The notes under the pieces were generated by a model. The model was not told the DNA's origin, searched no databases, and worked only from the letters and a program-made list of their open reading frames with translations. Positions 16,313 to 63,526 of a stretch of DNA of 64,000 nucleotides are shown here, piece after piece (position 1 is the first letter of the stretch; each line of letters starts with the position of its first letter). Source of the DNA: Bradyrhizobium sp. AZCC 1693 (lineage in GTDB: Bacteria; Pseudomonadota; Alphaproteobacteria; Rhizobiales; Xanthobacteraceae). The stretch covers positions 6,571,001 through 6,635,000 of the forward strand of contig NZ_JAZHSD010000001.1 in NCBI RefSeq assembly GCF_036924745.1. The letters are read 5' to 3'. Both the position numbers and the translations under genes were made by a program.

Positions 16313-16632
16313 AGTCTCCGCGAATCTGCTCTTTCGAGTTTGCGCGCGACGCAATCGTTGCAATTGACCTGCTCGTTGACCCCCAGGGAGTACGTTCGGT
16401 GGGGTCGCTGCCGTCATCGACGATGACGGGGGCCGCGTCCGCATATTGCATCTTGCTGCAAAACGTCCATGGCGGATTGTTGCTGTTCTTGATCGTCGAC
16501 CTGCCGCCGCACCCGTCGGTTGGTGATTGCGGAATCGAAGTGCGTTCAACGCGATGGACATAAAAATCTGGAGACATCACATTCAAGTTGCCGCAATGTC
16601 ATATCGTCCCCTGATTCCGTGCCAGATTGTCC

Positions 16633-17937
16633 GTGAAGCCAACAGACCCATCACATTCTGTTTCACCAAATTCGATGATGCGCACGGGCATCATCGCGGC
16701 AGTGCTTTTTGTTCTCGCGCATTTCGCGATGCTGATCGGCGTCACCACGCCGGAGAAGTTCTATTTCGACGAAGTGCATTATGTGCCGGCGGCGCGGCAG
16801 ATGCTCGAGCCGGTGATGCCACAGCCGATGCTCAACCCGATGCATCCGCCGCTCGCCAAACAATTCATCGCGCTGTCGATCCACTCGTTCGGCGATGGGC
16901 CGCTGGGCTGGCGCTATCCGGGCGTATTGTTCGGATCGCTCGCCATCGTCGCGGTGTATCTGTGCGGCCTGGCGCTGTTCGCAGCGCAGGGGCCGGCCAT
17001 CGCGGCGAGCCTGCTCGCCTTTTTCAACCAGATGCTGTTCGTGCAATCGCGGATCGCGATGCTGGATATTTTCGCGCTCACCTTCGGCCTGTTCGCCGTC
17101 GCCGCGTTCATGCATGGCTTTCGAAAGCAGCGGCCGCATCTGTGGTTCGCGCTTGCCGGGATCGGCTTCGGCCTGTCTGTCGCCTGCAAATGGAGCGGGC
17201 TGTTCGTGCTCGCGGTCTGCATCGTCATCGTCGCCGTGATCCGGCTGATGCGAGGCTGGCGCACCCAATTCGCCGACGCCCGGTCTGATGACTGGTACCG
17301 GCCCGATCTCTGGCCCGGCTTCAAGGCCTGGCACTTTGCGGCGTGCTTCATTCTGATTCCGGCCGCCGTCTATCTCGCGACGTTCATTCCGCTGTACGGA
17401 TTTTCGATTCCGGATATTCTGGAAGCGCAACGGCGGATCTTCCGCGATAACACCACGACCGCGATCGCGGGCCACATCTATATGAGTTCATGGCCGTCCT
17501 GGCCGTTCCTGGTGCGCCCGGTCTGGTATCTCTTCGACAAGATCGGCGACGACCGCATTGCCGCCGTGGTCTTCCTCGGCAACCCGCTAATCCTGTGGCC
17601 GGCGCTGATTGCGGTCGCGATCTGCCTGCGCGACTGGATCGTGACGCGGCGCGTGGATGCATTTCTGGTGCTGGCGTTCTACTTCGGCCCCTATCTCGCC
17701 TGGGCGCTGCTGCCGCGAACGTTAGGGTTTATTTACTATTACCTGCCGGCCGCGACCACCGCGAGTCTTGCGCTGGTCTACGCCTTGAAACGCGGCAGCA
17801 TGCCGGGATGGCTGCTATGGGCCTATGTTGCAGTTGGTTTTGCCGGCTTTGCCGCAATGTTGCCGATATCGGCCGCGTTCATAGGTACTTCGATGGCGAC
17901 GTTCAGCCGCCTGATGATCTTCCAGAACTGGATTTGA
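16633..17937 (+). CDS. PMT-family glycosyltransferase (dolichyl-phosphate-mannose-protein mannosyltransferase-like)
   Basis: Polytopic inner-membrane GT-C enzyme of about 434 aa with roughly ten hydrophobic segments. The first periplasmic loop carries FDEVHYVPAARQML, the acidic catalytic motif of PMT-type transferases, followed by NPMHPPLAKQF. Such enzymes move a sugar from a polyprenyl-phosphate carrier to protein or lipid. The start is uncertain: GTG at 16633 is used; TTG at 16627 and ATG at 16675 or 16678 are in frame and none has a convincing ribosome site. It stands alone on the strand after a 400-base gap. Confidence 0.82.
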   Translation: MKPTDPSHSVSPNSMMRTGIIAAVLFVLAHFAMLIGVTTPEKFYFDEVHYVPAARQMLEPVMPQPMLNPMHPPLAKQFIALSIHSFGDGPLGWRYPGVLFGSLAIVAVYLCGLALFAAQGPAIAASLLAFFNQMLFVQSRIAMLDIFALTFGLFAVAAFMHGFRKQRPHLWFALAGIGFGLSVACKWSGLFVLAVCIVIVAVIRLMRGWRTQFADARSDDWYRPDLWPGFKAWHFAACFILIPAAVYLATFIPLYGFSIPDILEAQRRIFRDNTTTAIAGHIYMSSWPSWPFLVRPVWYLFDKIGDDRIAAVVFLGNPLILWPALIAVAICLRDWIVTRRVDAFLVLAFYFGPYLAWALLPRTLGFIYYYLPAATTASLALVYALKRGSMPGWLLWAYVAVGFAGFAAMLPISAAFIGTSMATFSRLMIFQNWI

Positions 17938-18063
17938 GACTACCCGCGCGGCCGAGACGCTTAACGAGTAGTTACCCGAGCAGTCCACTTGTACGGGTCA
18001 TGGGGTCGCCGTAGATTCGTCGTTGCGTTGAGTCTCGAATCCCCGTTTTAAGGAACGACCGAC

Positions 18064-19686
18064 TTGTTGGGCTTCTTTGAACGTCTGCTCGATTCGTCGA
18101 TGTTCTCACCGCACGGAATATGCCTGCTTTGGGAACCCCAGTTGATCTGGCTCCACGTCGCGTCGGATATCGTGATTGCCTCCGCCTATTTCTCGATTCC
18201 CGTGGCGCTGTCGATCTTCGTCTCGAAGCGCCGCGACGTGGATTTCGGATGGGTGTTTTGGGCGTTCGCGCTGTTCATCATGGCGTGCGGCGTCGGCCAC
18301 GTGATGTCGATCATCACGCTTTGGTATCCGATCTATGGCGTCGAAGGCATCGTCAAGGCGATGACCGCCGCGGCGTCGATCGTGACGGCGGCGATGCTGT
18401 GGCCGCTGTTGCCGAAAGTGCTTGCGCTGCCCTCGCCATCGCAGCTTCGCGCCGCCGAAGTGGCGCTGGCGCAGGAAGGCGTGTACCGGCGCGAAGCCGA
18501 AGACATGCTTCGACAGTCTCAGAAGATGGAAGCGATCGGTCAATTGACCGGCGGCGTGGCGCACGATTTCAACAATCTGCTCACGATCATCAGCGGCAAT
18601 CTCGAGATTGCCGATCGCTGTTTGCATTCGTGGAGCGACGCCGCGCGTGAACGATTGACGCGCGTGATCGCCAATGCCGCGAACGGCGCGCATCGCGCGG
18701 CGATGCTGACGCAGCGCCTGCTGGCGTTTGCGCGGAGGCAGCCGCTCGATCCTAAACTGACCAACGTCGGTCAATTGATCGCCGGGATGTCGGATTTCTT
18801 CAGGCGAACGCTGGGCGAGAACGTCGAGCTCGAAGTCGTGGAGGGAGCCAGCCTATGGCAGATCGAGGTCGACCCCAGCCAGCTGGAAGCGGTGATTCTC
18901 AATCTTGTCGTGAACGCCAAGGACGCCATGAACGCCAAAATCTCGGGCGCAATGGCCAACAGCGGCAGGCTGACGATCGAGACCAGCAACGTCTCCGTCG
19001 ACGAGGGCTATCGGCAACAGAATGCAGGCGTGCCGGCCGGGGATTATGTATTGATCTCGGTGAGCGATACCGGTTCCGGAATGCCGCGGGAAGTCCAGGA
19101 GAAGGCGTTCGATCCGTTTTTCACGACCAAGCAACCGGGGCAGGGCACCGGCCTCGGATTGAGCCAGGTCTATGGCTTCGTCAAGCAATCCGGCGGCGAG
19201 ATCAAGATATACAGCGAGGTCGGGCATGGAACGACAATCAGGATCTATCTGCCCCGCGCCGCCGCCTCGCCCGAGACCGACGGACAGAGCGATGCGCCCG
19301 TGGTCGGCAGTTCGGGGAGCGAGACCGTCCTGGTGGTCGAGGACGAATGCGATGTGAGGTCGTATCTGGTCGAGACGTTAAAGGACCTGAACTACCGCGT
19401 TCGCGAGGCGGCGAACGGCGGGGCCGCGCTGGCGCTGTTCGACGCCAATCCGTTCCGGATCGATCTCTTGCTGACCGACATCGTGATGCCAGGCCTGAAC
19501 GGCCGCGAGCTGGCTGATCAGCTGCATCATCGCCAGTCGGGCCTGAGGGTCCTGTTCATGACCGGCTATTCGCGGGATGCGATCGTGCATCAGGGCCGGC
19601 TGGATCCCGGCGTGTCGCTGCTGCAGAAGCCCGTTACCCAGGCCTTGCTGGCGACAAAGATCAGGGAGATTCTCGACAAGGCGTAG
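18064..19686 (+). CDS. hybrid histidine kinase with ethylene-receptor-like (ETR1-type) membrane sensor and C-terminal receiver
   Basis: 540-aa membrane sensor; TTG start at 18064. Residues 25-115 form three hydrophobic helices closely matching the N-terminus of plant ETR1 (shared AYFSIP; CGVGH in place of CGATH). Every ETR1 residue known to matter for the Cu(I)/ethylene site, D25, Y32, I35, P36, I62, C65 and H69, is present here at +10: D35, Y42, I45, P46, I72, C75, H79. A HisKA helix follows (phospho-acceptor His167 in VAHDFNN), then an HATPase domain ([25 protein letters not shown]) and a receiver with Asp472 in TDIVMPG and Lys in LQKP. No GAF domain. Ethylene binding is inferred, not shown. 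Confidence 0.9.
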
Positions 19687-19781: not shown

Positions 19782-20414
19782 TCACTTGGACGCGGTCTTG
19801 GTGTCCATATTGACGACCTGAACGCGGCGGTTGGCCGGGTCCATCGGCGCATTCGCATCCTTCGGCCTGGTCTTGCCGTAACCGACGGTCACGAGGTTGG
19901 AACCGGTGATGCCGTACTTCTCGGTCAGGTACTTCTTGATCGTGTCGGCGCGACGTTCGGAAAGATCCTGGTTATACGCCTCGCCGCCGATCGCGTCGGT
20001 ATGACCGGCAACCACGAAGGTCGAACCCTTCAGGCTCGCATCGGAGAGCGCCTTGCCGAGTTCCTGCACGGCTGTCACTGAGCCCTTGCTGATGTCGGCC
20101 GAGTTGTAGTCGAACTGGATCTCGAGATCGATCTTCGGCTTGCTCGCGGCAAGTTCCGCAATTTCCTGGCGCTCGCCGAGCGACAGCGACCGCGTCTTGC
20201 GGTTGCGCAGCGTATTGACGAAGCTGGTTTCCTTGGCCTGTACGGCGGCGTCCACCGGCTGCTGCGGGCCGGTCGAAAGGCCGCGGGTCACGCCCGGCTT
20301 CGGCTTCAGAGCGTCCAGGATCTTGGCGGCCGAGACGGTGTCGCCGGCGGCAGCCAGGCCGGCCGTCATCGACAGCGCGGCGCCGATAGTCATGATGGAA
20401 AGAAAGCGGGTCAT
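19782..20414 (-). CDS. OmpA-family peptidoglycan-associated protein
   Basis: 210-aa exported protein. The signal peptide MTRFLSIMTIGAALSMTAGLAAAG (cleavage near residue 24) decides the start over an open frame reaching further upstream. Residues about 95-205 form an OmpA C-terminal domain: DYNSADISKGSV, then VAGHTDAIGG, QDLSERRADTIKKYL and NRRVQV, with the Asp and Arg that hold the diaminopimelate of peptidoglycan. There is no N-terminal barrel and no lipobox, so it is a soluble periplasmic or loosely outer-membrane protein. A perfect Crp/Fnr-type site lies upstream at 20501-20522. Confidence 0.92.
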   Translation of the reverse strand: MTRFLSIMTIGAALSMTAGLAAAGDTVSAAKILDALKPKPGVTRGLSTGPQQPVDAAVQAKETSFVNTLRNRKTRSLSLGERQEIAELAASKPKIDLEIQFDYNSADISKGSVTAVQELGKALSDASLKGSTFVVAGHTDAIGGEAYNQDLSERRADTIKKYLTEKYGITGSNLVTVGYGKTRPKDANAPMDPANRRVQVVNMDTKTASK

Positions 20415-20500
20415 TGTCCTAATCCTCATTGTTAAACGCCTGCAAAGCGTGGCGTGCATGACGTTTTGATGCTGCGAGGATAAGACGGGTTCAAAGCGGG

Positions 20501-20522
20501 CAATGTGATTCAAGTCACATTG
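20501..20522 (-). promoter_or_regulatory. Crp/Fnr-family binding site upstream of OmpA-family gene
   Basis: CAATGTGA-TTCAAG-TCACATTG: perfect 8-bp arms with a 6-base centre, including the full TGTGA-N6-TCACA consensus of E. coli CRP. It is centred about 97 bases upstream of the OmpA-family ATG, a plausible activator position. A Crp-type (cAMP) regulator fits better than FNR/FixK, whose core is TTGAT-N4-ATCAA. Confidence 0.6.
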
Positions 20523-21269: not shown

Positions 21270-22442
21270 ATGCCCCGCGCGACTGAACCCCGCCCCCTGA
21301 CCAAGACCGAGGCCCGGCGAATCTGGCTGCATGCCCAGCGGCTCGATACGAACGAGCCGTTCGGTGCCGGACCGCAGGCGGTTGCGGCGGCGGTGGACCA
21401 TCTCGGCTATGTGCAGATCGACACCATCCACGTCATCGAGCGCTGCCATCATCACATTCTCTATAGCCGTATCCCGGCCTATGCCCGCGCCGACCTACGC
21501 CAGGCCCAGAGCGCCGACAAAAGCGTGTTCGAGTACTGGACGCACGCGCTGTCCTATGTGCCGGCGAAGGACTTTCGCTTCTTCGTCCCGGCGATGCGGG
21601 AGCACCGGCGCGAGGGCCACCGGTGGTTTGCTTCCGTCAAGCCGGAGGACACCCGCAAGGTGATGCGGCTGTTGCGGCGCGATGGCGCTCTCACCATCCG
21701 TGACATCGAGGACGACGTCCTGACCGAGAAGGAACATCTCTGGCAGAGCCGCAAACCCTCGAAGCGGGCGCTGCAGCTTGCCTTTTACACCGGCGAGGTC
21801 ACGATCTCCGAACGCACCGGCATGCTCAAGACCTATGAGCTGATGACGCGGCATTTCGGCTGGGACAAACCGCCGAAGCCGGCCTCGGCGGCTGAACTCA
21901 CCGCCTACCTGCTCGACCGCGCGTTACGCTCGCAGGGCATCGTCAGCCTCGATTCCATCTGCCATCTCGACGCGCCGAGCAAGGGCGCGGTGCGGCGCCT
22001 GATCGACGCGCGGGTGCGGCGCAAGGAATTGGTGCCGGTCGCGCTCGAAGGCGCCGGCAAGCAGGAGCATTGGGTCCGGCCGGAAGTGCTGGAGGCAGAT
22101 CGGCCGGCAGATGCGGGCGATGGCCCGGTGCACATCCTCTCGCCGTTCGATCCGCTTGTTATCCAGCGCAAGCGCACCGAATTGTTCTTCGACTACGGCC
22201 ACCGCTTCGAGGCCTATGTGCCGAAGGAAAAACGCCTGTTCGGCTATTTCGCGCTTCCGGTTCTGGCAGGCAGCGACATCGTCGCCGCCATCGACCTGAA
22301 GACCGACCGCCAGAACAAGAAATTGCTGATGCAGAAATGGAGCTGGGTCGGCAAGGGCGCGGCGCGGGCCGCGCGCAAGGACTACAAGCGCCGCATCGAG
22401 GAAGAACTGGATCGCTTTGAGCGGTTTCAGTTGGCGGAATAG
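21270..22442 (+). CDS. YcaQ/AlkX-type winged-helix DNA glycosylase
   Basis: 390-aa protein of the HTH_42 (formerly DUF1006) family. The catalytic Q-phi-D motif is seen in GYVQIDTI (about residues 46-53), followed by the family pattern ERCHHHILYSR and YWTHALSYVP. Winged-helix segments fill the middle, and the end has LSPFDPLV, FGYFALPVL and IDLKTDR, all typical. The YcaQ branch excises bulky or crosslinked N7-alkylguanine adducts and acts in interstrand-crosslink repair; the related AlkZ branch has Q-phi-Q instead. It stands alone. The reading as a repair enzyme follows from the family. Confidence 0.88.
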   Translation: MPRATEPRPLTKTEARRIWLHAQRLDTNEPFGAGPQAVAAAVDHLGYVQIDTIHVIERCHHHILYSRIPAYARADLRQAQSADKSVFEYWTHALSYVPAKDFRFFVPAMREHRREGHRWFASVKPEDTRKVMRLLRRDGALTIRDIEDDVLTEKEHLWQSRKPSKRALQLAFYTGEVTISERTGMLKTYELMTRHFGWDKPPKPASAAELTAYLLDRALRSQGIVSLDSICHLDAPSKGAVRRLIDARVRRKELVPVALEGAGKQEHWVRPEVLEADRPADAGDGPVHILSPFDPLVIQRKRTELFFDYGHRFEAYVPKEKRLFGYFALPVLAGSDIVAAIDLKTDRQNKKLLMQKWSWVGKGAARAARKDYKRRIEEELDRFERFQLAE

Positions 22443-23168: not shown

Positions 23169-23197
23169 CTTCATCAGATCCTGCGATGGAGAGTCCG

Positions 23198-24304
23198 ATG
23201 TTCGCCCGTTCCATTTTCTCTAGCTATTACAGGCTCTTGACAGGTGCGTCGCTGGCCTTTGCGGTATTTGCGCTGGCCGGTTGCAATGAAAAGGCGGCTG
23301 AAACGGCCGCTCCCGGACGCCCGGTTCTGATCGCCACGGTGCACTACGCGGCCGAGACGCCGGAGCGCAGCTTTGTCGGCACCATCCGGCCCCGGATCGA
23401 GACTGACATGGGCTTCCGGGTTCCCGGCAAGGTCGCGAGGCGCCTGGTCGAGGTTGGCCAGACCGTCGATGTCGGCCAGCCGCTGGCTACTCTCGACGAG
23501 GTCGATCTGAAGCTGCAGGCCGAGCAGGCGGAGGCCGAATTCCGCGCCGCCACCGGTGTGCTGGCGCAGGCTGGCGCCGCCGAGCAGCGCGCCAAGGATC
23601 TGCGCGCCAAGGGCTGGACCACCGACGCTCAGATGGATCAGAGCCGCGCCGCGGCCGATGAAGCGCGCGCACGCCTTAGTCGCGCCGAGCGGCAGGTCGA
23701 ACTCACCAAGAATTCTCTGTCTTATGCGACGCTGCTGGCCGACAGCCGCGGCGTCGTTACCGCGACCCTGATCGATCCCGGCCAGGTCGTGGCCTCCGGC
23801 CAGACCGCGGTCCGCGTCGCGCGCTTTGCCGAGAAGGAAGCCGTGGTCGCCATCCCCGAGACGCTGGTCGGCCGCGCCAAGGCCGGCACGGCTACCGTGA
23901 CGCTGTGGTCGGATTCGGAAAAGAAATACACCGCGAAGCTGCGCGAGATCGCGCCCTCGGCCGATCCGGCGACCCGGACCTATCTTGCAAAATTCTCGTT
24001 GCCGGAAGCCGACGACAAAGTCTCGCTCGGTATGACCGCGACGCTGACGCTTGCGGATGCCGCCACCGAGCGCGTCGCAAAGCTGCCGCTGTCGGCGTTG
24101 TTCAGCCAGGGCAGCAACCCCTCGCTTTATACCGTCGATGATGCCGGCGCGGTGAAGCTGCAGCCGGTGGTCGTGAAATCCTATGAGAGCGATGCCGTCG
24201 TGATCGCAGGCGGCGTCAATGAAGGCGCCAAGGTGGTCGCGCTCGGCGTGCAGAAGATCGATCCGGCCCAGAAGGTCCGGGTGGTCTCGGCGCTATCGTT
24301 CTGA
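23198..24304 (+). CDS. RND efflux periplasmic adaptor (membrane fusion protein), lipoprotein
   Basis: 368-aa HlyD/AcrA-type adaptor. The signal peptide ends in the lipobox LAGC, with the lipidated Cys about residue 29. The barrel-sandwich strands ETDMGFRVPGKVARRLVEVGQTVDVGQ flank a coiled-coil hairpin (about 95-165), followed by the ADSRGVVTATLIDPGQVV half-motif and the beta-barrel. ATG at 23198 is chosen because GGAGAG lies four bases before it; another ATG at 23186 overlaps that site. It links the inner-membrane pump coded next to an outer-membrane channel, which is not coded here. Confidence 0.92.
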   Translation: MFARSIFSSYYRLLTGASLAFAVFALAGCNEKAAETAAPGRPVLIATVHYAAETPERSFVGTIRPRIETDMGFRVPGKVARRLVEVGQTVDVGQPLATLDEVDLKLQAEQAEAEFRAATGVLAQAGAAEQRAKDLRAKGWTTDAQMDQSRAAADEARARLSRAERQVELTKNSLSYATLLADSRGVVTATLIDPGQVVASGQTAVRVARFAEKEAVVAIPETLVGRAKAGTATVTLWSDSEKKYTAKLREIAPSADPATRTYLAKFSLPEADDKVSLGMTATLTLADAATERVAKLPLSALFSQGSNPSLYTVDDAGAVKLQPVVVKSYESDAVVIAGGVNEGAKVVALGVQKIDPAQKVRVVSALSF

Positions 24305-59150: not shown

Positions 59151-60154
59151 CGCATCACCTCATTGTCGATCGCGCCGCGCTGCACATAGCCAAGCGTCAG
59201 CTCGGCCAGCGCCGGCGCCAGCAGAAAGCCGTGGCGGTAAAGGCCATTCACCGCGATCTTGTTCTTAGCGATTGTGATCCGCGGCAGGTTGTCGGGGTAG
59301 GCGGGACGAAGGCCCGAGCCGAACTCGACGATGCGCGCTTCGGCAAAGGCCGGATGCACGGCATAGGCGGCGCCCAATAGCTCCAGCGCCGAGCGCACGC
59401 TGACGCCGGTGTCTTCGGCCTCGATCGAGGTCGCGCCCAGCATGAACCTGTTGTCGCCGCGCGGGATCACATAGAGCGGCCAGCGCGGATGGATCAGCCG
59501 AACTGGGCGCGCCAGCTCGACCTCGCTGGTCTCGATGATAATCATCTCGCCCTTGACGCCGCGCAACTCTGGTTGCTCGTCGCGCGCGGACAAGCCGCGG
59601 CAGTCGATCACGATGCCGTCGAGATCCTCGGCAGCAGCATCGCAGTCGAACTTGATGATGCCGCCGGCGGCTTCGATGCGGGCATGCAGTTCGGGGAGCA
59701 CGCGGCGCGGCTCGACATGGCCCTCATCGGCATAGAACAGCCCGTCACGGAAACGGCCGTCCAGCGATGGTTCGAGGTCGCTCAACGCCTGCGCGTCGAG
59801 CCTGACATGGCCGGTGGTCAGTTTCGCAAAACGTTCGAAATCGGCGCGGTCGCGCGCATGCGCCACGACCAGCGATCCGTTGAACGGGGTTTTGGGAAAA
59901 TGCTCGCGCCACAGATCGAGCGAGCGGACGCCGAGCCGGCCGATCACCGGCTCCGAGGTCTCGGCCTCGCACCAGGGCGCCAGCATGCCGCCGGCCCAGT
60001 GGCTGGTCGAGAGTGTCATATCGGCGTCACTGCGCTCGTACAGAGTGACGGCATGGCCGGCCTGCGCGAACAGCAACGCCTGCCATGCGCCGGCAATGCC
60101 CGCGCCGATGATGGAAACGGGGGAATCCCCGCGCAGATCTGACTTCTGGTACAT
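59141..60154 (-). CDS. thiO: glycine oxidase ThiO
   Basis: 337-aa FAD enzyme that oxidises glycine to iminoglycine, the dehydroglycine needed by ThiG. The FAD motif SIIGAGIAGAWQALLFAQAG is at residues 14-33, the DAO family body includes RGLSARDEQPELRGVKGEMI and RPVRLIHPRWPLYVIPRG, and GLYRHGFLLAPALAEL near the end is typical. It is the first gene of the operon: its ATG abuts the last base of the TPP riboswitch. Confidence 0.94.
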   Translation of the reverse strand: MYQKSDLRGDSPVSIIGAGIAGAWQALLFAQAGHAVTLYERSDADMTLSTSHWAGGMLAPWCEAETSEPVIGRLGVRSLDLWREHFPKTPFNGSLVVAHARDRADFERFAKLTTGHVRLDAQALSDLEPSLDGRFRDGLFYADEGHVEPRRVLPELHARIEAAGGIIKFDCDAAAEDLDGIVIDCRGLSARDEQPELRGVKGEMIIIETSEVELARPVRLIHPRWPLYVIPRGDNRFMLGATSIEAEDTGVSVRSALELLGAAYAVHPAFAEARIVEFGSGLRPAYPDNLPRITIAKNKIAVNGLYRHGFLLAPALAELTLGYVQRGAIDNEVMRCV

Positions 60155-60271
60155 CCCTGTCCCTTCGCCGGCATGACCCGGATCAGGTTCAAAGGGTCAC
60201 CGCGGTCCAGCGCCTTTCGGCCCAAGCTTGCGGTATCTCAGCTCCTCATCGGAGCACCCCTCGGAACAGGG
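60155..60271 (-). promoter_or_regulatory. TPP riboswitch (THI element) of the thiamine operon
   Basis: On the minus strand: P1 5' arm CCCTGTTCC, then GAGGGGTGCTC, the invariant CTGAGA, the second half CCTTTGAACCTGATCC, the conserved GGGTCATGCCGGCGAAGGGA, and P1 3' arm GGGACAGGG (60155-60163), which pairs base for base with the 5' arm. The 3' arm contains the purine-rich ribosome site and ends immediately before the thiO ATG, so ligand-bound P1 would hide the ribosome site. Confidence 0.95.
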
Positions 60272-61443: not shown

Positions 61444-62769
61444 CTAGGCCGCAGCGCGGCCGCTGTTCTGGTGGATTGGCAATCGCATCCGAACCACCAG
61501 ACCATGTGGCTGCCGGTCGTGCAGCGACAGCGCGCCGCCATGCGCTAGCACGATGGCATTCGTGATCGAAAGCCCAAGGCCGAAGCCTGCCGCTTCATCC
61601 ATGTTGCGGGCGTCGTCGCCGCGCACGAACGGCTCCAGCATATTCTGCTTCAGCGCATCCGAAATGCCGGGGCCGTCGTCCTCGACGTCGATGGTCAGCT
61701 GATCCTGTGAGACGCGAAGGCGGATCACCGCTTCGGCGCCGAACCTCACGGCATTCTCCACCAAATTGGTGACGGCGCGGTGCAAATCGTCCGGCCGCAC
61801 CGTGGCCATCGCATGCGCGGGGCCGTGATAGGCGACCTTGCGTCCCATGTCGCCGAACTGGTCGGTTATGAGCTGCAGCGTGCTGGCGACGTCGGCCAGC
61901 GTCATGGCCTCTAACCTGCGGCCGTTGCGCAGGAACGACAGCACGGACTCAAGCATCGCGCGCATCTGGTCGAGATCGTCGAGCATGCGGCTGCGATGGG
62001 TTTCGTCCTCGATGAATTCGGAGCGCAGACGCATTCTTGTAATCGGCGTGCGCAGATCGTGGCTGATCGCGGCGAGCATTTTGGTGCGGTCGTCGATCAG
62101 GCCGGTGATGCGCTCGCGCATCCGGTTCAGCGCGCGCGCGACTGAGCGGATTTCCTCCGGCCCGCGCTCGGGCAGCGGCGCGGCGCCGCCGTTGAGGCTG
62201 AAACTTTCGGCGGCTTTTGCGAAGGACGACAATGGCGCGGTCAACGCCCGCGCCGCCCACAGGCCCAGCAAAGTGACGCTGATGACGGCAAACAGCAGCG
62301 TCATCATCCAGGGACCGCCGAGAAACGGCGGCCGCGGCCGGTCCGGCAGGACCTTGGCCGAAATCGTCATACCGTCAGGCAAGCCGATGCCGACCTTGCG
62401 GCTCCCATCGCTCGCAAGCTGGAAGACGCGATAATCGCGGCCGAGGCGCTGCTGCAGGCCGTGCGGATCGAATCCGTCTGGCTCGATTGCCGAAGGCACC
62501 GGCCCGGCGGGCAGGATTTCGATGCCGAGCTGCGGAAAGGCGCGCGCGATGTCGGCGGACAGCCGCGGCCGTTCCGGCGCGGGCGCGGCGCCGAGCAACT
62601 GTACGGCGGCGGCAAGCTGGCCATGGCCGCGGTCAGACGACGGCTCCGGCTGGTCGGGCCGGTGCAGCAGAAAGCTCGCGGTGATGATCAGATGAAGCGC
62701 TGCGATCGAGACGACGACGAGGGCTGCGATCTGGCCGCTGATGCCGCGCAGGTTCAGGAGGCCCTTCAT
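61444..62769 (-). CDS. sensor histidine kinase (EnvZ-like, HAMP)
   Basis: 441-aa inner-membrane sensor. Two helices (about residues 13-36 and 152-175) frame a periplasmic sensor of some 115 residues, then a HAMP linker (about 172-225), the phospho-acceptor His237 in ISHDLRTPITR, and the catalytic domain with NLVENAVRFG, DVEDDGPGI and GFGLGLSI. The gene starts two bases after the stop of the adjacent response-regulator gene, so they form a pair. The signal is not known. Confidence 0.92.
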   Translation of the reverse strand: MKGLLNLRGISGQIAALVVVSIAALHLIITASFLLHRPDQPEPSSDRGHGQLAAAVQLLGAAPAPERPRLSADIARAFPQLGIEILPAGPVPSAIEPDGFDPHGLQQRLGRDYRVFQLASDGSRKVGIGLPDGMTISAKVLPDRPRPPFLGGPWMMTLLFAVISVTLLGLWAARALTAPLSSFAKAAESFSLNGGAAPLPERGPEEIRSVARALNRMRERITGLIDDRTKMLAAISHDLRTPITRMRLRSEFIEDETHRSRMLDDLDQMRAMLESVLSFLRNGRRLEAMTLADVASTLQLITDQFGDMGRKVAYHGPAHAMATVRPDDLHRAVTNLVENAVRFGAEAVIRLRVSQDQLTIDVEDDGPGISDALKQNMLEPFVRGDDARNMDEAAGFGLGLSITNAIVLAHGGALSLHDRQPHGLVVRMRLPIHQNSGRAAA

Positions 62770-62771
62770 GA

Positions 62772-63526
62772 TCAGTGGCCGGCGGCGGTCACCGCCTCGA
62801 TACTGATGGCTTCAACGCGCGGGGTGAACATGTAGCCGCCGGAGCGCACCGTCTTGATCATGGTGGTAGTTTGCGGATCGGGTTCGATCTTGCGGCGGAT
62901 GCGGCTGACCAGCACGTCGATCGAGCGCTCGAACGAGCCGGCATTGCGGCCCTGCGTGAGGTCGAGCAGGCTGTCGCGCGACAGCACGCGGCCGGGCCGC
63001 TCGCAGAATGTCCGGAGCAGGTCGAACTCGGCGCTGGTCATCGCCACGTGCGCGCCCTCGGGATTGCGCAGCTCCCGCAGCCGGCAATCGATCCGCCAGC
63101 CCGCAAATACGAGCACGGCTGCTCCCTCGGTGGCACTGGCGGTGTAGGCGGCGGCCTGCCGGCGCAGCACCGCGTTGATCCGGGCCAGCAGTTCGCGCGG
63201 GTTGAACGGTTTGGCGAGATAGTCGTCGGCGCCCATTTCGAGGCCGAGGATGCGATCGATGTCCTCGCCGCGCGCGGTCAGCATGATGATCGGGGTCTGC
63301 GATTGCGCGCGCACCTTGCGGCAGAGGGTGAGGCCGTCCTCGCCGGGCAGCATGACGTCGAGGATCAGGAGATATCTACCCTGCGGTCGGTCATGGCGCG
63401 GGCCATCTCGCGGCCGTCGGCTGCTGTGGCCACGTTGCAGGCGTTGTTGCGCAGGTATTTTGCGATCAGCGACCGCGTCTCGCGATCGTCCTCGACGACG
63501 AGGATGTTGGGTATTGCCTGGGCCAT
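62772..63526 (-). pseudogene. OmpR-family response regulator, frameshifted in the receiver domain
   Basis: Partner of the histidine kinase. The first frame runs from ATG 63526 (MAQAIPNILVVEDDRE) to DRRVDIS then stop at 63365. The second, from ATG 63353, reads MLPGEDGLTLCRK through the winged helix (MTSAEFDLLRTFCERPGRVLSRD) to 62772. Removing a duplicated AT (GATAT for GAT, about 63372-63377) rejoins them as RRVDLLILDVMLPGEDG, restoring the phospho-acceptor Asp and giving 250 aa. As written the receiver is broken right before that Asp. Confidence 0.88.

What the first reader, a model, noticed from the sequence alone, without database searches (positions are those of the whole stretch)
18064..18430. 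Hybrid histidine kinase with a complete ethylene-receptor (ETR1-type) copper site in a rhizobial-type bacterium
Seen: the three-helix N-terminus matches plant ETR1 in order and spacing. All seven ETR1 residues known from mutants to be needed for the Cu(I)/ethylene pocket, D25, Y32, I35, P36, I62, C65 and H69, have identical counterparts at exactly +10 (D35, Y42, I45, P46, I72, C75, H79), with no gap. Known: bacterial ethylene-binding receptors exist in cyanobacteria and Azospirillum. Inference: this protein binds Cu(I) and ethylene, a plant signal that limits nodulation, and passes it on through its own HisKA-HATPase-receiver without a GAF domain. A soil or symbiotic bacterium sensing host ethylene directly would be notable.
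Basis: partly seen in the sequence, partly recalled or inferred. Interest (0 to 1): 0.85.

Follow-up and report, generated by a model that had tools for sequence, protein, structure and literature searches.

The report
Bacterial ethylene receptor in Bradyrhizobium
A soil bacterium, probably a Bradyrhizobium, carries a sensor protein whose membrane part has all seven residues that the plant ethylene receptor needs to bind ethylene, and over half of the related species examined carry a similar sensor, with or without nodulation genes.

Summary
ORF 18064-19686(+) encodes 540 aa: ETR1_N (PF25487, E 1.6e-38), HisKA, HATPase, receiver. All seven site residues are present, at +10 to plant ETR1 with no gap from D25 to H69. 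The closest characterised relative found, Azospirillum AzoEtr1, binds ethylene (PMC11819568); 68 of 124 residues are identical, ungapped.

It is a new member of a known kind. PF25487 matches occur in 181 of 265 genomes of the genus, 147 of them strong; the 34 strong loci aligned, mostly best-scoring ones, all keep the site. A nodulation role is not supported here: no NodA, no NifH above cut-off, no clear receptor-NodA link across the genus (84 of 139 with NodA versus 63 of 126 without).

New here: the genome also holds a paralogue with Arg in place of the copper-ligand His. All 120 listed relatives of it share that Arg, and its clade nests inside the Bradyrhizobium receptors. Ethylene binding by the window's protein is inferred, not shown.

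The parts
18064..19686 (+). Receptor gene, 540 aa, TTG start: ETR1_N - helical linker - HisKA - HATPase - receiver
   Evidence: start codon position supported by ATG in 11 of 12 syntenic loci tried
18050..18054 (+). AAGGA, likely ribosome-binding site, 9 bases before the TTG
   Evidence: sequence; AAGGA also in 10 of 11 aligned relatives
18109..18132 (+). N-terminal motif PHGxCxxW (residues 16-23) ahead of helix 1; Cys20 may play the part of the plant N-terminal dimer cysteine (inference)
   Evidence: of 65 loci with D35, C75 and H79: G18 and W23 in 65, H17 and C20 in 64, P16 in 62
18142..18429 (+). ETR1_N ethylene-binding-type domain, residues 27-122, three predicted helices (25-55, 62-87, 91-120)
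   Evidence: E 1.6e-38, 131.3 bits, cut-off 27; helices from a low-confidence model (mean pLDDT 64.3)
18166..18201 (+). Helix 1 site residues D35, Y42, I45, P46
18277..18300 (+). Helix 2 site residues I72, C75 and H79 (C75 and H79 = the copper ligands by homology with ETR1 C65/H69)
   Evidence: roles from PMC11819568 passages
18355..18357 (+). K98, helix 3, counterpart of AzoEtr1 K98 / ETR1 K91 (predicted bond with the Asp)
   Evidence: PMC11819568 passage
18538..18741 (+). HisKA; phospho-acceptor H167 (18562-18564) in the sequence HDFNN
   Evidence: 26.7 bits, just under the cut-off of 26.9; H167
18871..19260 (+). HATPase_c; residues of the N, G1, F and G2 boxes present (box names recalled); kinase core closest by sequence to CckA in the PDB
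19327..19662 (+). Receiver domain, phospho-acceptor D472 (19477-19479), K522
16627..17937 (+). Upstream neighbour: PMT-type membrane glycosyltransferase; conserved neighbour in part of the genus, functional link not shown
   Evidence: 12 of 27 loci compared
19782..20513 (-). Downstream convergent neighbour: OmpA-family protein; conserved order, functional link not shown
   Evidence: 12 of 27 loci; in L188 about 7 kb off

Best explanation
A membrane-bound hybrid histidine kinase that binds Cu(I) through C75 and H79 in a three-helix domain and uses it to hold ethylene, that is, a bacterial ethylene receptor homologous in its sensor part to AzoEtr1. Shown: the anatomy, the intact site, the kinase and receiver residues, the kinship, the wide spread in the genus. 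Inferred: copper and ethylene binding. Inferred further: ethylene changes the packing of helices 1-3, the change runs down the helix that links TM3 to the H167 helix (no GAF or PAS between), kinase activity falls (as reported for ETR1, indirectly for SynEtr1, and predicted for AzoEtr1 in PMC11819568), and less phosphate reaches D472 of the fused receiver and from there an unlinked phosphotransfer protein or regulator. The kinase core is CckA-like, so a ChpT-type HPt partner is a guess worth testing. The likely signal is soil, rhizosphere or microbial ethylene, not nodulation of a legume by this strain.
For: ETR1_N E 1.6e-38; all seven residues plus K98; 68 of 124 identical to AzoEtr1, ungapped from residue 1, with the same numbering D35/C75/H79/K98. 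The AzoEtr1 used is the 525-aa ORF of A. brasilense Sp7 with an overlapping receiver ORF, which fits PMC11819568 section 6. The seven sites are invariant in the 120 listed of 2012 proteins found with the sensor part and in the 34 strong-match loci of the genus aligned (30 of them the best-scoring). In the paralogous clade that lost the His (R in 120 of 120), Y42 became F in 120, P46 was replaced in 120, I45 in 110 and I72 in 115, while D35 was kept in 120, K98 in 117 and C20 in 115: the site residues changed together. H167, D472, K522 and the ATP-site residues are present.
Against: No binding measured. No dedicated partner was seen: the eight neighbouring genes scanned with Pfam include no copper chaperone or receiver, and the protein's own receiver, used as query, hit no other ORF of 80 aa or more in the window (E <= 0.01; a distant receiver could be missed). 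2 of 12 syntenic loci (L185, L191) have the reading frame broken in the ATPase domain, so the gene may be dispensable. 118 of 265 genomes of the genus have no strong match, 84 of them no match at all (some genomes are incomplete). HisKA scores just under Pfam's cut-off. The structure model is of low confidence (pTM 0.37). The tree's link to AzoEtr1 is weak (82/76).
Confidence: 0.75

Rival explanations
1. A Cu(I) sensor: the site binds copper, but the physiological signal is copper (or another small gas or alkene), not ethylene.
For: The ligand residues are those of a copper site, and sequence alone cannot tell the signal. One neighbour, four genes downstream (23186-24304), is a membrane-fusion protein whose Pfam match is the 'CusB or HlyD' domain (E 7.1e-16); CusB is a copper-efflux subunit (recalled), but HlyD types carry many cargoes.
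Against: The set includes residues (Y42, I45, P46, I72) that alanine scanning of ETR1 linked to ethylene binding (PMC11819568), and they are kept or lost together with the His. The closest characterised relative binds ethylene. No other copper-homeostasis gene was noted among the eight neighbours scanned.
Confidence: 0.12
2. An ethylene receptor that serves symbiosis: it reads legume ethylene to time nodulation.
For: 84 of 139 genomes with a strong NodA match also have a strong receptor match; a root-nodule isolate, Rhizobium sp. 32-5/1, carries a receptor gene with the full site on a 1.09-Mb plasmid.
Against: This genome has no NodA match and no NifH above cut-off. Across the genus the receptor is nearly as frequent without strong NodA (63 of 126), Fisher p = 0.11 without correction for kinship.
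Confidence: 0.1
3. A relic: an inherited sensor that no longer binds or signals.
For: Frame breaks in 2 of 12 syntenic loci; no match in 84 of 265 genomes of the genus.
Against: This copy has an uninterrupted frame with the catalytic and site residues; site residues are invariant in the 120 listed close relatives.
Confidence: 0.06

Closest known systems
AzoEtr1 of Azospirillum brasilense Sp7 (PMC11819568; section 6, part 1 of section 12 and passages read)
   Same: ETR1_N with the same residue numbering D35/C75/H79/K98; 68 of 124 residues identical without gap; HisKA-HATPase output; N-terminal PHGxCxxW motif
   Different: AzoEtr1 has a PAS domain and no receiver; its receiver is a separate, overlapping gene. 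Here the receiver is fused, no PAS is found, and no other receiver was found in the window. AzoEtr1 binding is measured; here it is not.
SynEtr1 of Synechocystis (slr1212; passages of PMC6682694, PMC7700396, PMC10452086 and PMC11819568 read)
   Same: Bacterial ETR1-type sensor with histidine-kinase signalling
   Different: Described with a phytochrome-like domain and a separate regulator slr1213; its sequence was not fetched here
Plant ETR1 (P0244 and relatives)
   Same: Same three-helix domain and site at +10; hybrid kinase with a fused receiver
   Different: 39 of 113 aligned columns identical in the N-terminal part; the plant hits carry PF01590, the GAF family (name recalled), absent here
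CckA (Caulobacter; PDB 5idj, 5idm)
   Same: Closest solved relative of the kinase core: E 6.6e-52, first in the fold search
   Different: Different sensor part; the partner ChpT and the CtrA role are known for CckA (PMC5189948 passages) and only guessed here

Membership tests
ETR1-type ethylene receptors | Three-helix ETR1_N domain | tested here: met
   PF25487 E 1.6e-38, 131.3 bits against a cut-off of 27
ETR1-type ethylene receptors | Seven residues needed for binding in AtETR1 | tested here: met
ETR1-type ethylene receptors | Lysine of helix 3 (ETR1 K91 / AzoEtr1 K98) | tested here: met
   K98
ETR1-type ethylene receptors | Common descent with characterised receptors rather than convergence | tested here: met
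   Domain-wide homology. The tree (97 columns) groups it with Rhodovastum and Methylobacterium rows (98/78) and, weakly, AzoEtr1 (82/76)
ETR1-type ethylene receptors | Histidine-kinase or kinase-like output | tested here: met
   HisKA (just under cut-off), HATPase, receiver; H167, D472
ETR1-type ethylene receptors | Saturable, copper-dependent ethylene binding | not testable with these tools
   needs 14C-ethylene binding
Plant-type ETR1 subfamily | GAF domain between membrane part and kinase | tested here: not met
   no GAF or PAS match at E <= 0.001
AzoEtr1/SynEtr1-type two-gene system | Separate receiver gene beside the kinase gene | tested here: not met
   receiver fused; no other receiver found in window ORFs of 80 aa or more with the protein's own receiver as query (E <= 0.01)

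The most novel reading that the evidence does not exclude
Bradyrhizobium has a widespread ethylene sense built on two related sensors: a copper-site receptor (this gene) and a daughter clade in which the copper-ligand His became Arg, with Tyr42 and Pro46 replaced throughout and Ile45 and Ile72 in most members, while Asp35, Lys98 and Cys20 were largely kept. The Arg form would be a re-purposed, copper-free or differently tuned partner (a dimer partner, a decoy, or a sensor of another small ligand). This genome has both.
Probability: 0.2. Interest if true: 0.7.

Novelty: new member of a known kind. Interest (0 to 1): 0.48.

Why it matters
Ethylene is a known negative regulator of nodulation (abstract of PMC13291814), and work on ethylene in plant-microbe associations has mostly looked at how microbes change plant ethylene (PMC11819568 passage). 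If these receptors work, over half of the Bradyrhizobium genomes examined (147 of 265; 84 of these 147 with a strong NodA match) could read ethylene directly, and that can be tested with existing assays. The Arg-79 paralogues are a natural experiment on the copper site. The receptor is also a GAF-free and PAS-free form that joins the ethylene domain straight to a kinase-receiver, useful for structural work: no relative of the sensor domain was found by sequence in the PDB copy (E <= 1).

Tried and rejected
Nodulation link: tested with NodA across 265 genomes; no clear association, and this genome lacks it. I split NodA into strong (E below 1e-60, 139 genomes) and weak (24 genomes, E 9.4e-4 to 9.8e-7; my guess is other acyltransferases); the weak ones were counted as lacking NodA. 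Most of the weak ones are over Pfam's own cut-off (160 genomes over it in all), so the split is mine.

ACC deaminase link: this genome has one (579 bits), but 232 of 265 genomes of the genus do over the cut-off, so co-occurrence says little.

Structure: the AlphaFold model from 59 sequences was poor (mean pLDDT 64.3, pTM 0.37) and was used only for the helix layout; the best matches listed by the fold search are kinase cores. The second structure job was not used.

c-di-GMP control as in CckA: Y370 aligns with the Tyr of the CckA stretch TVYGIVKQ, which I take to be Y514 (needed for c-di-GMP binding, PMC5189948 passages) by counting from the recalled H322; the Trp a few residues on in CckA, which I recall as part of that site, is Glu here. 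Not pursued.

Tree: of 107 aligned rows I dropped 19 (12 divergent or wrongly captured, among them L182, which my ORF picker caught wrongly; 2 near the query, L001 and P0014; 5 near-duplicates), leaving 88 rows and 97 columns. 30 forks are open, and plant and cyanobacterial rows join by long branches, so no claim is made on the origin of the plant receptors.

Literature: searches of the held open-access library showed me no title or abstract on an ethylene receptor of Bradyrhizobium. The listings were partial (for example 20 of 60, 20 of 62), and the 18 papers that hold 'ethylene receptor', 'Bradyrhizobium' and 'histidine kinase' were seen as listings only. Papers opened say that many plant-associated proteobacteria have putative receptors (PMC11819568, PMC7700396). 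Three key papers (PMC4972284, PMC1785413, PMC10266040) are not held, so an earlier listing of Bradyrhizobium is quite possible.

Full report
What is there. The ORF at 18064-19686 (+) encodes 540 aa. Pfam finds ETR1_N at residues 27-122 (E 1.6e-38), HisKA 159-226 (26.7 bits, 0.2 under the cut-off), HATPase 270-399 and a receiver 422-533, and no GAF or PAS at E <= 0.001. The TTG start, on which the '+10' numbering rests, lies at the codon where 11 relatives have ATG (12 loci tried; L004 did not match my pattern), nine bases after AAGGA.

Comparison with the plant receptor. Against a plant ETR1 (P0244) the register +10 gives 23 of 56 identical residues, the eight other registers tried 1 to 6. The alignment has no gap from D25 to H69 but has gaps on either side.

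Closest characterised relative. A tblastn of residues 20-125 against the plasmid records gave 19 records, seven of them Azospirillum. The Sp7 plasmid copy (L177) holds a 525-aa ORF from its ATG and an overlapping downstream receiver ORF, which fits the published description of AzoEtr1 and AzoRRetr1 (PMC11819568 section 6). The window protein and AzoEtr1 share 68 of 124 residues from residue 1 with no gap. [quoted passage not shown] Domain layouts differ: PAS and no receiver there, receiver and no PAS here.

Spread. PF25487 matches at E <= 0.001: 181 of 265 genomes of the genus, 42 of 297 drawn from the order, 29 of 398 drawn from the phylum; eight of the matching genomes in each of the last two samples belong to the genus itself. 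None of 14 control genomes rang. In the genus I split by best E-value: 147 strong (below 1e-30) and 34 weak only. The 34 strong loci of the genus that I aligned (L001, L083-L111, L112, L117, L118, L121; mostly the best-scoring, so a biased sample) all carry D, Y, I, P, I, C, H and K. Over the 76 loci aligned, from all three samples (78 tried; L137 and L138 gave no hit), the counts are D 71, Y 66, I 66, P 66, I 68, C 72, H 71, K 71. Among the best 120 of 2012 proteins found with the sensor part, the seven sites are invariant and K98 is kept in 119.

Layouts. Of nine ETR1_N proteins scanned, four are PAS-free with a receiver as here (L186, L196, L198, L164), three Bradyrhizobium ones have PAS and a receiver (L195, L205, L206), and two have no receiver (L119, L161). 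So the output part varies freely around a constant sensor.

The Arg paralogue. The same genome has a second ETR1_N kinase (C1:7509099-7509383, L002/P0122; 533 residues as translated; ETR1_N E 2e-21) with R at position 79, F at 42, T at 45, A at 46, V at 72. Among the best 120 of 438 proteins found with it, R79, F42 and D35 are present in 120, A46 in 118, K98 in 117, C20 in 115, C75 in 109; I45 survives in 10 and I72 in 5. The four genomic examples aligned (L002, L134, L135, L168) agree on R79, F42 and A46. I take the 34 weak-only genomes to hold this form, but only two of them (G237, G208) were looked at. In the tree the seven paralogue rows form one clade (100/100) on a long stem inside the Bradyrhizobium-Rhodopseudomonas clade (100/97). 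I read this as a duplication followed by loss of the copper-ethylene site with the fold and the Asp-Lys pair kept. It is uniform replacement rather than decay, which hints at a new ligand or a partner role; that is inference.

N-terminal motif. Loci with D35, C75 and H79 (65 of 76) keep G18 and W23 in 65, H17 and C20 in 64, P16 in 62. Plant receptors have cysteines at the same end, and a disulfide-linked ETR1 dimer is in the literature (title seen in the reference list of PMC13012798). As the Arg paralogues keep C20, I think it serves dimer structure rather than copper; inference.

Neighbourhood. In 12 of 27 loci compared (L003, L004, L185-L194) the receptor follows the same PMT glycosyltransferase gene; an OmpA-family gene is also found in these 12 (in L188 about 7 kb off) and AlkZ in 11. 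In the other 15 none of the nine neighbours was found within the DNA held. The order is stable in part of the genus, and no function follows from it. No second receiver gene was found in the window by a search with the protein's own receiver (E <= 0.01); a weak kinase match lies at 61447-62811 (-). Two of the 12 syntenic copies (L185, L191) are frame-broken in the ATPase domain.

Lifestyle. NodA: none in this genome, 163 of 265 in the genus at E <= 0.001, 139 strong by my split. NifH: best 24.5 bits against a cut-off of 394. ACC deaminase: present (579 bits) but common in the genus, 232 of 265 over the cut-off. Strong receptor and strong NodA occur together in 84 genomes, receptor only 63, NodA only 55, neither 63; Fisher p 0.11, not corrected for kinship. 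With any ETR1_N match the table is 98, 83, 41, 43 (p 0.43). The receptor looks like a feature of the genus rather than of its nodulating members.

Mechanism. The predicted helices (25-55, 62-87, 91-120, then 125-156 towards the HisKA helices) come from a poor model and are taken only as a layout. The kinase core is nearest to CckA by sequence (E 6.6e-52) and in the fold search. Ethylene is reported to inhibit the kinase activity of ETR1, with indirect evidence for SynEtr1 and a prediction for AzoEtr1 (PMC11819568 section 12, part 1 of 2 read). I expect the same here, with output through the fused receiver to an unlinked HPt protein. Steps shown: anatomy, conserved site, catalytic residues. Steps inferred: copper, ethylene, direction of the switch, partner.

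Verdict. A genuine new member of a known kind. What I have not seen in print, within the limits of the searches named in Tried and rejected, is the spread in the genus without a clear link to NodA and the Arg-79 daughter clade.

Noticed in passing
L002 / L201 (own genome C1:7509099-7509383): Second ETR1_N kinase in the same genome with the copper-ligand His replaced by Arg; the 120 listed relatives share this.
   Followed up: yes
L185 and L191: Two syntenic copies of the receptor have the reading frame broken within the ATPase domain, in single-contig genomes; real loss or sequencing error cannot be told.
   Followed up: partly
L180 (Rhizobium sp. 32-5/1, root nodule isolate, 1.09-Mb plasmid): Plasmid-borne ETR1_N gene with the full seven-residue site in a nodule isolate of another rhizobial genus.
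   Followed up: partly
L165, L169, L171-L176 (Nodosilinea sp. FACHB-131): One cyanobacterial genome holds eight ETR1_N matches; four of them (L173-L176) have Asn in place of the conserved Asp.
   Followed up: no
window 18109-18132 and relatives: Conserved PHGxCxxW motif just before helix 1 in bacterial ETR1_N proteins, its Cys kept in 115 of 120 Arg paralogues.
   Followed up: partly
L195, L205, L206 versus L186, L196, L198: Within the genus, ETR1_N kinases come with and without a PAS domain.
   Followed up: partly
window 60142-60271 (-): TPP riboswitch aptamer (Rfam RF00059, 71.7 bits).
   Followed up: no
window 61447-62811 (-): A further open frame with a weak histidine-kinase match (E 6.5e-05 within the window ORFs).
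   Followed up: no
window 21270-22442 (+): AlkZ-like DNA glycosylase gene (Pfam E 5.3e-68), part of the conserved gene order.
   Followed up: no
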